Positions 1 through 1,728 of a DNA stretch of 33,109 bases are shown in pieces (position 1 is the first letter of the stretch; each line of letters starts with the position of its first letter). Source of the DNA: Candidatus Binataceae bacterium. GTDB taxonomy: Bacteria > Desulfobacterota > Binatia > Binatales > Binataceae. The position numbers and the translations under genes are program-made. The notes below the pieces were generated by a model that worked only from the letters and a program-made list of their open reading frames with translations, had not been told where the DNA came from and did no database searches. Location: contig JASHOJ010000073.1 of assembly GCA_030041155.1 (NCBI GenBank), forward strand, positions 1 to 33,109, given 5' to 3'.

Positions 1-198
1 CGCGTCAGGTTTGCGGTCTGGACTATCCCTTCACCATCCCCCGGAATATCCGGGGCTTAGGTGCTGCCCGTCTAGTCTCTACACCTTCCCGGCTGGGATG
101 TTCCGGCCGGGCTTGGCTCGGGATTGCCATGTCACAGGTTTCCCCGAATTTGGGCAGTTCTGCATCGCCGGTTTCCAGGCGAGCACTCAAGTTTCCTC
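1..198 (-). ncRNA. Group I intron (tRNA-Leu type), 3' end outside window
   Basis: The minus strand shows the conserved core of a subgroup IC3-type self-splicing intron in the right order. The P element is near 152-136 (..TTCGGGGAAACCT), Q near 129-110 (GGCAATCCCGAGCCAAGCC), R near 90-60 (GAAGGTGTAGAGACTAGACG and following bases) and S near 31-15 (AAGGGATAGTCCAGACC). The R and S strands form P7, the guanosine-binding helix. The exon end ACUU can pair with GAGU in the intron start (about 190-186) to form P1 with the expected U-G wobble at the splice site. At least 198 nt are present and there is no homing endonuclease gene within the visible part. The family resemblance to cyanobacterial tRNA-Leu introns is recognised from memory, not by search. 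Confidence 0.9.
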
Positions 199-233
199 AA
201 GTCCGTTGCGTCTGCCGGTTCCGCCACGCCCGC
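1..233 (-). tRNA. tRNA-Leu(UAA), 5' exon plus group I intron, truncated by window edge
   Basis: On the minus strand the 5' exon (233-199) folds as a leucine tRNA: acceptor strand GCGGGCG (233-227), U8-G9, D-stem GCG/CGC, base 26 A, anticodon-stem strand ACGGA, then C-U-U. Reading stops after U34 and a group I intron begins, so the remaining anticodon bases, the variable arm, the T arm and the acceptor 3' strand lie left of base 1. Insertion after the first anticodon base of tRNA-Leu(UAA) is the classic site of the cyanobacterial/plastid intron. The 5' end lies 8 bp after the integrase stop codon, so both may share a transcript. The UAA identity is inferred from intron position and exon sequence because the 3' exon is not visible. 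Confidence 0.88.
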
Positions 234-241
234 ATGGCTGA

Positions 242-1555
242 TCATGTATAGCTTTTATCAGAGGGTTGCGGAACGTACACCTCAGCCTTGTTTCGACGTT
301 TCGGAGGGTTGCTTTTCCCTTTTGGTCTTGGCCTCGGCCTCATGATGTTGATGGCGGCGGCGTCAAGGTTGGTCTTGATGTGGGAGGCGTAGTACTTCTC
401 GATCATCTCGACGCTGGTGCGGCAGTTTTTGGCGATCTGGTAGATGTCGGCGCCTTCCATCAGGCGCAGACAAATGTATGTGTGGCGCAGGCTGTAGGCC
501 GTTCGAGGGCGGCCTTCACGATCGAATCTGAGATTTTCCTCATCGAGGATCGCGTTGAAAAGGTCGCGCTGCCACTTCGGGAAGATGAGGTCTGTCGGTC
601 CGGGAAGGCGCCACTCTTCCGATGTGTTCGGGGCGGGGTTTGATGTGTTGTCGTCAACCTTGTCTGTGTGGTCCGCGCGCGGCGGACGGAGTCGAGCGCG
701 CAATCTCTCGAAGGGTCGAACAGCGCCGGTCATGCTCTTGCAGTAGCCGACGCCGCGCTTGCCGCGCACCTCGATCTCAAGGATGGTTTGGCCGCTCGCG
801 TCGTCTTCAACGATTGTGACGTCGCGGAATTGAAGCCGCCAGGCTTCGTCGGGGCGAAGGCCGGTGTTGGCCGCGAACAGAACAAAGTCGTGAAGCTGTT
901 CCGATTCCCATTTGTAGCGGGTCGTCTTTGGCTCGTGGGCGCGCGTGCGGGTGGCTTCGTAGAGCTTTTTGTATTCCTCAGGGGAGAACCAGGCCCGGTG
1001 CGAGATTTTTGGAGAAGATCTGTACGGTTCGGAAAGGTCCGGCATACGGTCGAGCCATCCATTCCGAACGGCGGTTTTCAAAGTTTGCCGGAGGGTTACG
1101 ATCTCCTGGTGCATGGTGTTGCGGGCCGGCGGCTTGCCACGTTTGGCCGTCGCTTCTTCGAGGCGATGTATTCGGTATTCCTGGACCTTGCCGGGGGTAA
1201 TTTCCGAGAGGCCCAAGGAGCCGAAGAACGGCACCAGGTGCACGCGCGATCGCCAGTGCAGGCCGTTGACGTAGATCTTGCTGCGCTCGCCTTGCGTGAT
1301 GAGGTCATACTCGCGCAGGAACTGTTCCGAGGCTTCGTTGAAGGTCTTTTCAGTTTTGATTTCGCCGTTGCGGAGTTTGCCGCGAAGCTGCAGGTACCAG
1401 TCCTCCGCGATCTCCTTGGCTCTGGAGAGGCTGTCTTCCTTCGTCGTTGTCCGGCGGTTTTTCCCGCCGAGGTAGGTGGAGCATTGCCAGCGGGTGCTGT
1501 TCGGGCGTTTGTAAACGTGAACCTTGCCGCCCAAGACTGTGTGGTGTTCCGTCAC
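242..1555 (-). CDS. Tyrosine recombinase / phage-type integrase
   Basis: A 437-residue site-specific recombinase of the lambda-integrase family, which cuts and rejoins DNA at attachment sites through a 3'-phosphotyrosine. The N-terminal third has the SAM-like core-binding character of integrases. The catalytic part carries an Arg region (NTGLRPDEAWRL), the signature SLRHTYICLRL (His-x-x-x-Arg type box) and the nucleophile in EKYYASH. The reading frame stays open upstream to 1831, but that stretch translates through a tRNA fragment. The GTG at 1555 is therefore preferred: it begins VTEHHTVLGGK and has GGAGG about 10 bases upstream. The C-terminal tail is very basic (RPRPRPKGKSNPPKRRNK). It lies between a truncated tRNA-Leu (1688-1728) and an intron-bearing tRNA-Leu, which strongly suggests tRNA-targeted integration. 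Confidence 0.9.
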   Translation of the reverse strand: MTEHHTVLGGKVHVYKRPNSTRWQCSTYLGGKNRRTTTKEDSLSRAKEIAEDWYLQLRGKLRNGEIKTEKTFNEASEQFLREYDLITQGERSKIYVNGLHWRSRVHLVPFFGSLGLSEITPGKVQEYRIHRLEEATAKRGKPPARNTMHQEIVTLRQTLKTAVRNGWLDRMPDLSEPYRSSPKISHRAWFSPEEYKKLYEATRTRAHEPKTTRYKWESEQLHDFVLFAANTGLRPDEAWRLQFRDVTIVEDDASGQTILEIEVRGKRGVGYCKSMTGAVRPFERLRARLRPPRADHTDKVDDNTSNPAPNTSEEWRLPGPTDLIFPKWQRDLFNAILDEENLRFDREGRPRTAYSLRHTYICLRLMEGADIYQIAKNCRTSVEMIEKYYASHIKTNLDAAAINIMRPRPRPKGKSNPPKRRNKAEVYVPQPSDKSYT

Positions 1556-1654
1556 CGAAGGATGCCCTCCGCGCGGTCTCAAAACTAGCAAAATGTGTAA
1601 GGGTTGTGCAACTCTGCCGACAGGCTTCAGTCGACAAATTCCGCTGTGTGTATG

Positions 1655-1691
1655 GATATTATTCGTAAAACCAAAAATTGATATTACGATT
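1655..1691. promoter_or_regulatory. Candidate recombinase arm/core repeats at element end
   Basis: Next to the break in the tRNA fragment lie a direct repeat GATATTA (1655-1661 and 1680-1686) with 25-bp periodicity and an inverted repeat TCGTAA (1663-1668) / TTACGA (1684-1689). Their position, exactly where tRNA identity stops and just upstream of the integrase, is what an attachment-site core would show. Function is inferred. Confidence 0.35.
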
Positions 1692-1728
1692 TTAAGTCCT
1701 CTGTGTCTACCGATTTCACCACCCCGGC
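1688..1728 (-). other. Truncated tRNA-Leu(UAA) 5' half; probable attachment-site remnant
   Basis: The minus strand reads acceptor GCCGGGG (1728-1722), U-G, D-stem GTG/CAC with an AAATCGGTAGA loop, then A-GAGGA-CTTAAAA-TC. That is a tRNA-Leu(UAA) 5' half including the whole anticodon loop with UAA at 1694-1692. After two bases of the 3' anticodon-stem strand (expected UCCUC) the sequence diverges and no variable or T arm follows. Bases 1-41 of a tRNA ending in the anticodon stem is the product expected when a tyrosine recombinase crosses over in the anticodon arm. The sequence differs from the intron-bearing tRNA-Leu at 199-233, so it is not a simple tandem copy. Confidence 0.78.

What the first reader, a model, noticed from the sequence alone, without database searches (positions are those of the whole stretch)
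199..1728. Element end in a disrupted tRNA-Leu anticodon arm, with an intron-protected replacement tRNA next to the integrase
A tRNA-Leu(UAA) is cut two bases into its 3' anticodon-stem strand, an integrase follows, and 8 bp after the integrase lies a different tRNA-Leu(UAA) whose anticodon loop is split by an intron. The intron breaks exactly the sequence block (GGACTT|AAAATC) that remains in the disrupted copy. Inference: the element destroyed or displaced the native tRNA and carries a substitute that its own recombinase cannot target.
Basis: partly seen in the sequence, partly recalled or inferred. Interest (0 to 1): 0.72.

Follow-up and report, generated by a model that had tools for sequence, protein, structure and literature searches.

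The report
Gene island with intron-shielded replacement tRNA
A mobile DNA island inserts itself into a leucine tRNA gene that its host needs, destroying it, and carries a substitute tRNA gene whose self-splicing intron cuts exactly the sequence the island's own integrase recognises, so the substitute appears safe from re-insertion.

Summary
On the minus strand the window has the 5' half of a tRNA-Leu(UAA) (1728-1688), a tyrosine integrase (1555-242) and, 8 bp later, the 5' exon of a second tRNA-Leu(UAA) (233-199). That exon is followed by a group I intron (Rfam RF00028), which runs into the contig end. It is one case of a widespread architecture. Of 80 related integrases from several phyla, 66 sit behind a tRNA-Leu 5' half and about 42 are followed by the same intron-split tRNA-Leu(UAA). 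Both ends were mapped in seven islands (16-47 kb). The core is GGACTT/CAAAATC (12 bp as a rule), and joining the flanks restores an intact tRNA-Leu in all seven. In the window's family, one congener holds the exact empty site. Three other genomes keep the intron tRNA after the integrase was lost or broken. The window genome and two isolates tested have no other tRNA-Leu(UAA). Mechanism: tRNA-dependent integration, as shown experimentally for actinobacteriophages, here in apparently non-phage islands and with a self-splicing intron that splits the att core of the replacement tRNA. The shielding role of the intron is inferred. The window's 3' exon and far end are not in the assembly.

The parts
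1688..1728 (-). attL: 5' half of the native tRNA-Leu(UAA), acceptor GCCGGGG; the last 12 bp (1699-1688, GGACTTAAAATC) are the att core
   Evidence: intact copies in element-free family members; empty site G270
242..1555 (-). tyrosine recombinase (integrase), about 437 aa, GTG start, conserved R..K..R-H..Y positions kept
   Evidence: Pfam PF13102 at its N-terminal part; 80 relatives, up to 83% identity; alignment
244..260 (-). weak promoter-like stretch (TGATAA..TATACAT) just upstream of the cargo tRNA, overlapping the integrase 3' end; clearer promoters sit at the same place in relatives
199..233 (-). 5' exon of the cargo (replacement) tRNA-Leu(UAA), ending GGACTT at U34
1..198 (-). group I intron, 3' end and 3' exon cut off by the contig end
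   Evidence: RF00028 48.7 bits, E 7.6e-11; alignment with 24 relatives

Best explanation
The window holds the integrase end of an integrative genomic island. Shown by comparison: the integrase recombines a core of about 12 bp (GGACTTAAAATC) in the anticodon arm of the host tRNA-Leu(UAA). The core is too short to rebuild the gene, so the native tRNA is left in two halves at the island's ends. The island carries a complete tRNA-Leu(UAA) beside the integrase, with its own promoter in most relatives, and this is the only tRNA-Leu(UAA) found in the genomes checked. Inferred: the substitute tRNA keeps the host alive because UUA codons need it, which makes the island or its remnant hard to lose. Also inferred: a self-splicing group I intron between U34 and A35 splits the att core of the substitute gene at DNA level, so the integrase cannot insert there or recombine it with attL, while splicing restores a normal tRNA at RNA level. 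Other islands solve the same problem with intronless substitutes whose anticodon stem differs from the target.
For: Both ends mapped in seven islands: 16.4, 27.3, 31.6, 33.2, 34.6, 35.6 and 46.9 kb; joined flanks give an intact tRNA-Leu in 7 of 7. 66 of 80 relatives have the tRNA-Leu half upstream of the integrase. The intron tRNA-Leu(UAA) follows the integrase in about 42, always split at GGACTT|AAAATC where readable. No other tRNA-Leu(UAA) was found in the window genome, in Edaphobacter lichenicola M8US30 or in Pelagibacterium luteolum. Empty site: G270 shares both flanks with the 10.9-kb remnant in G313. G313 and G034 have lost the integrase and G041 has a broken one, yet all keep an intact intron tRNA. 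Core positions 29-38 of the spliced cargo match the current target in 23 of 35 intron cargos against 1 of 9 intronless (Fisher p 0.006, not corrected for kinship). The one intronless UAA cargo (L115) has a changed stem. L106 carries a differently placed group I intron, probably in a tRNA-Leu(CAA). Cargo promoters: TTGGC-N15-18-TATA in 13 of 17 proteobacterial cases against 0.003 in shuffles; the motif was chosen after looking. The rescue step itself is proven in mycobacteriophages (PMC10865867).
Against: Neither splicing nor integrase specificity was tested experimentally. The window lacks the 3' exon and attR, and its assembly is a fragmented MAG about 94% complete, so a missed tRNA is possible. 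The intronless cargo L096 keeps core positions 29-38 identical to its target, so small stem changes may suffice and the intron may not be strictly needed. The intron-versus-intronless comparison is confounded by shared ancestry. The Rfam score of the window intron is just under the gathering cut-off.
Confidence: 0.85

Rival explanations
1. The replacement-tRNA island is real, but the intron is a passenger: one ancestral island captured an intron-bearing tRNA-Leu(UAA) of the cyanobacterial type, and the intron has been inherited without any role against the integrase.
For: The introns are alike in sequence and insertion site across phyla. The label is clustered on the integrase tree. Group I introns of this kind are typical of tRNA-Leu(UAA) in general.
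Against: The intron sits in the middle of the 12-bp core. It is kept on a tree that needs at least 8 label changes on well-supported branches. The only intronless UAA cargo has a changed stem, and L106 has a variant intron, probably in a CAA cargo.
Confidence: 0.25
2. An ordinary tRNA-restoring island, where the attP of the element rebuilds the host tRNA at one end.
For: Related integrases in tRNA-fMet, Arg and Phe genes do lie next to an intact tRNA.
Against: After AAAATC the left end does not continue as tRNA, in the window or in the Leu-targeting relatives, and the right ends carry only the 3' half or a 5'-truncated copy.
Confidence: 0.03
3. The two tRNA halves act as a trans-spliced split tRNA, and the intron tRNA is a spare.
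For: Two halves of one tRNA exist in one genome in the mapped relatives.
Against: No trans-splicing signals were seen. The 5' half is decaying in G313, G034 and G041 while the intron tRNA stays intact. Bacteria are not known to have this pathway.
Confidence: 0.02
4. The intron guards the tRNA against something else, for instance anticodon nucleases or other mobile elements using the same site, or it regulates the tRNA.
For: Some islands carry defence genes: a type III restriction-modification pair and AbiE in L052. An intron would also block other integrases using this loop.
Against: After splicing the mature anticodon loop is normal, so nucleases would still see it. No regulatory feature was found.
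Confidence: 0.08

Closest known systems
tRNA-dependent lysogeny of actinobacteriophages (Guerrero-Bustamante and Hatfull 2024, PMC10865867)
   Same: [quoted passage not shown] Phage Gaia even has tRNA-Leu-CAA downstream of int.
   Different: No integrase relative was found in phage or viral collections. The islands lie in Acidobacteriota, Pseudomonadota and other phyla. The substitute tRNA holds a group I intron that splits the core. The paper text mentions no intron in these tRNAs.
Group I introns in bacterial tRNA-Leu(UAA), cyanobacterial type (reviewed in PMC3984707)
   Same: Same RNA family (RF00028), intron between U34 and A35, no reading frame inside the short intron.
   Different: Here the intron-bearing gene is cargo of an integrase island. 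The review text contains neither 'integrase' nor 'genomic island'.
tRNA-targeting genomic islands (Islander, PMC4383910)
   Same: Tyrosine integrase, tRNA target, anticodon-centred crossover.
   Different: Islander islands restore the tRNA; these do not, so a search that needs a full tRNA plus a fragment would miss them.
Randau and Soell idea that archaeal tRNA introns block integration (cited in PMC3293823)
   Same: An intron in the att region prevents integrase targeting.
   Different: There it is a host defence idea with protein-spliced introns; here the element itself carries a ribozyme-interrupted tRNA.
Tycheposons (see PMC10872708)
   Same: tRNA-associated, tyrosine-recombinase islands.
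   Different: No split host tRNA with an intron-bearing substitute is described in the text read.

Membership tests
tRNA-dependent lysogeny / tRNA-dependent integration | tyrosine family integrase at a tRNA gene | tested here: met
tRNA-dependent lysogeny / tRNA-dependent integration | short core, tRNA not reconstructed at attL or attR | tested here: met
   attL in the window; both ends in seven relatives, core usually 12 bp (10 bp in L053, 34 bp in L063). The window's attR is not in the assembly.
[quoted passage not shown]
   5' exon plus intron in the window; complete genes in relatives, ARAGORN Leu(taa) after splicing
tRNA-dependent lysogeny / tRNA-dependent integration | carried tRNA is required for survival of the integrant | not testable with these tools
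   indirect only: sole Leu(UAA) found; kept when the integrase decays
tRNA-dependent lysogeny / tRNA-dependent integration | the element is a temperate phage | tested here: not met
   no relative in IMG/VR or INPHARED; some distant relatives on megaplasmids
Group I intron (RF00028) | conserved core helices and P, Q, R, S sequences at a tRNA anticodon site | tested here: met
   48.7 bits, E 7.6e-11, just under the gathering score; relatives in L207, L208 and L282 exceed it; 33 of 77 pairs with two-sided changes
Group I intron (RF00028) | self-splicing | not testable with these tools
   not assayed; the window intron is truncated at its 3' end
Islander-type tRNA-restoring island | functional tRNA regenerated at the junction | tested here: not met

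The most novel reading that the evidence does not exclude
A self-splicing group I intron serves a mobile element as a recombination shield: it hides the att core of the element's own replacement tRNA at DNA level and removes itself at RNA level. Hosts then keep the intron tRNA after the island decays, which would make such islands a main route by which frame-less tRNA-Leu introns spread between bacterial phyla.
Probability: 0.6. Interest if true: 0.85.

Novelty: new variant of a known kind. Interest (0 to 1): 0.75.

Why it matters
It would give a group I intron a concrete benefit to its carrier, make testable the old idea that tRNA introns guard tRNA genes against integrases, and extend tRNA-dependent integration from actinobacteriophages to apparently non-phage islands in several phyla. 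It also offers a route for how short, endonuclease-free tRNA introns move between distant bacteria and become fixed: the host cannot lose the tRNA after its own copy is split. Island finders that require a restored tRNA would miss these elements.

Tried and rejected
ARAGORN without introns finds no tRNA in the window, and Rfam at gathering misses the intron by 1.3 bits; both are threshold effects. The window's 3' half and 3' exon were sought by pattern and by DNA search in the own genome and not found (C105 checked). A phage origin was rejected. Conventional tRNA restoration was rejected from the mapped ends. Three mis-parsed 3' exons (L056, L057, L083) and five genes cut by gaps or contig ends were counted only as probable. 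Most other group I introns in the phylum survey lie in other tRNAs or elsewhere, with no related integrase nearby. The literature search covers open-access papers only.

Full report
What is in the window. All three features lie on the minus strand. At 1728-1688 is the 5' half of a tRNA-Leu(UAA), GCCGGGG...GGACTTAAAATC, which then turns into unrelated sequence. At 1555-242 is a tyrosine recombinase (Pfam Phage_int_SAM_5); the conserved Arg, Lys, Arg-His and Tyr positions of the family are kept. After 8 bp comes the 5' exon of a different tRNA-Leu(UAA), 233-199, followed by a group I intron (RF00028, 48.7 bits, E 7.6e-11). The contig ends at position 1, so the intron's 3' end and the 3' exon are not visible.

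A recurrent architecture. A scan of one genome per species with the integrase gave 80 relatives, most in Acidobacteriota and Pseudomonadota, others in Gemmatimonadota, Planctomycetota and Verrucomicrobiota. Of these, 66 lie 120-240 bp downstream of a tRNA-Leu (UAA or CAA) 5' half that breaks off after the anticodon loop. Most of the rest have a truncated contig, a tandem or attP-like left side, or other tRNA targets (fMet, Arg, Phe). About 42 are followed by a tRNA-Leu(UAA) with a group I intron. In 37 the whole gene could be read, the intron (204-274 nt) always splitting GGACTT|AAAATC. For 34 of these the spliced exons are a tRNA-Leu(UAA) by ARAGORN, and the other 3 were mis-parsed at the 3' exon. 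Another 15 carry an intronless tRNA-Leu at the same place. In the acidobacterial CAA-targeting group the two islands read in full carry an intronless tRNA-Leu(CAA) about 4.5-5 kb from the far end.

Element ends. Seven islands were delimited: L052 16.4 kb, L065 27.3 kb, L130 31.6 kb, L063 33.2 kb, L076 34.6 kb, L053 35.6 kb, L103 46.9 kb. The shared core is GGACTTAAAATC, GGACTCAAAATC or CGACTCAAAATC; it is 10 bp in L053 and 34 bp in L063. The far end holds the 3' half of the host tRNA. Joining the flanks gives an intact tRNA-Leu in all seven, so the host gene was split and not rebuilt.

The window's own family. Of 41 genomes of the family, at least 25 show an intact, intronless tRNA-Leu(UAA) with the same GCCGGGG acceptor (plus G270). 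Four carry the intron tRNA: the window genome, G041, G034 and G313; each has the 5' half of the native tRNA. G270 is the natural empty site. Its left flank matches G034 and G313 up to the core, and its right flank (93% identity) resumes in G313 at GGACTTAAAATC, 10.9 kb away. G313 and G034 no longer have the integrase, and G041 has one that lacks its start and is frame-shifted, yet the intron tRNA is intact in all three. G313 also shares neighbouring genes with the window (by comparing translations), so this is the same locus. These are stages of decay in which the substitute tRNA stays behind.

Sole copy. The own genome has tRNA-Leu for TAG, CAA (two), CAG and GAG but no other TAA. A whole-genome tRNA search in two isolates with islands, E. 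lichenicola M8US30 and P. luteolum, gives GAG, CAA, TAG and CAG but no TAA outside the island.

Role of the intron. In the cargo gene the intron sits in the middle of the att core. If spliced in silico, core positions 29-38 equal the current target in 23 of 35 intron cargos but in 1 of 9 intronless ones (Fisher p 0.006, not corrected for kinship). Intronless cargos mostly have a changed base pair next to the loop. The only intronless UAA cargo, L115, has a changed stem. L106 holds a differently placed group I intron, probably in a tRNA-Leu(CAA) cargo. This fits a need to hide the cargo from the integrase, met either by an intron or by stem changes. It remains an inference; shared ancestry of the intron is the main rival.

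Expression. Most cargo tRNAs have their own promoter-like sequence: TTGGC-N15-18-TATA in 13 of 17 proteobacterial cases (0.003 in shuffles), and TATGAT or similar in 14 of 17 acidobacterial ones (0.6 in shuffles). The motifs were chosen after inspection.

Literature. Rescue of a split tRNA by an element-borne tRNA is established for actinobacteriophages as tRNA-dependent lysogeny (PMC10865867). That paper mentions no intron in these tRNAs. Classical islands restore the tRNA (PMC4383910). An intron as a shield against integration has been proposed for archaeal hosts (Randau and Soell, cited in PMC3293823). The review of bacterial group I introns does not mention integrases. I found no report of an intron-bearing replacement tRNA in an island, within open-access papers only.

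Verdict. The system works like tRNA-dependent lysogeny but is not a phage as far as tested, and it adds a self-splicing intron to the substitute tRNA.

Noticed in passing
L180:2659-16109 (island of L052): The 16.4-kb acidobacterial island carries a type III restriction-modification pair (DNA methylase and ResIII), an AbiEi/AbiEii toxin-antitoxin pair and an HATPase protein.
   Followed up: partly
L277 and L222 (G313 remnant, 10.9 kb): The integrase-less remnant still holds a type III polyketide synthase, an FAD monooxygenase, ABC transporter parts, an aminotransferase and a YceI-like protein.
   Followed up: partly
L162-L164, about 35.7 kb into the L053 island: A second copy of the tRNA 3' half lies 128 bp beyond the first, a likely scar of repeated insertions at one site.
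   Followed up: no
L097, L098, L099, L102, L115, L122, L126 upstream of the integrase: Instead of a tRNA half the left side looks like another island's right end plus core (TTACACA repeats), as in tandem islands or an attP.
   Followed up: no
L095, L129, L279 (tRNA-fMet), L100 (Arg), L116 (Phe): Related integrases target other tRNAs and have an intact tRNA next to them, the conventional restoring layout.
   Followed up: no
L202, L203, L204: Other group I introns in the same phylum split a different, short-variable-arm tRNA in the anticodon loop, without a related integrase nearby.
   Followed up: no
L066: An island with a UAA intron cargo sits in a tRNA-Leu(CAA) target; a UAA tRNA could in principle read UUG as well, so the cargo may cover both targets.
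   Followed up: no
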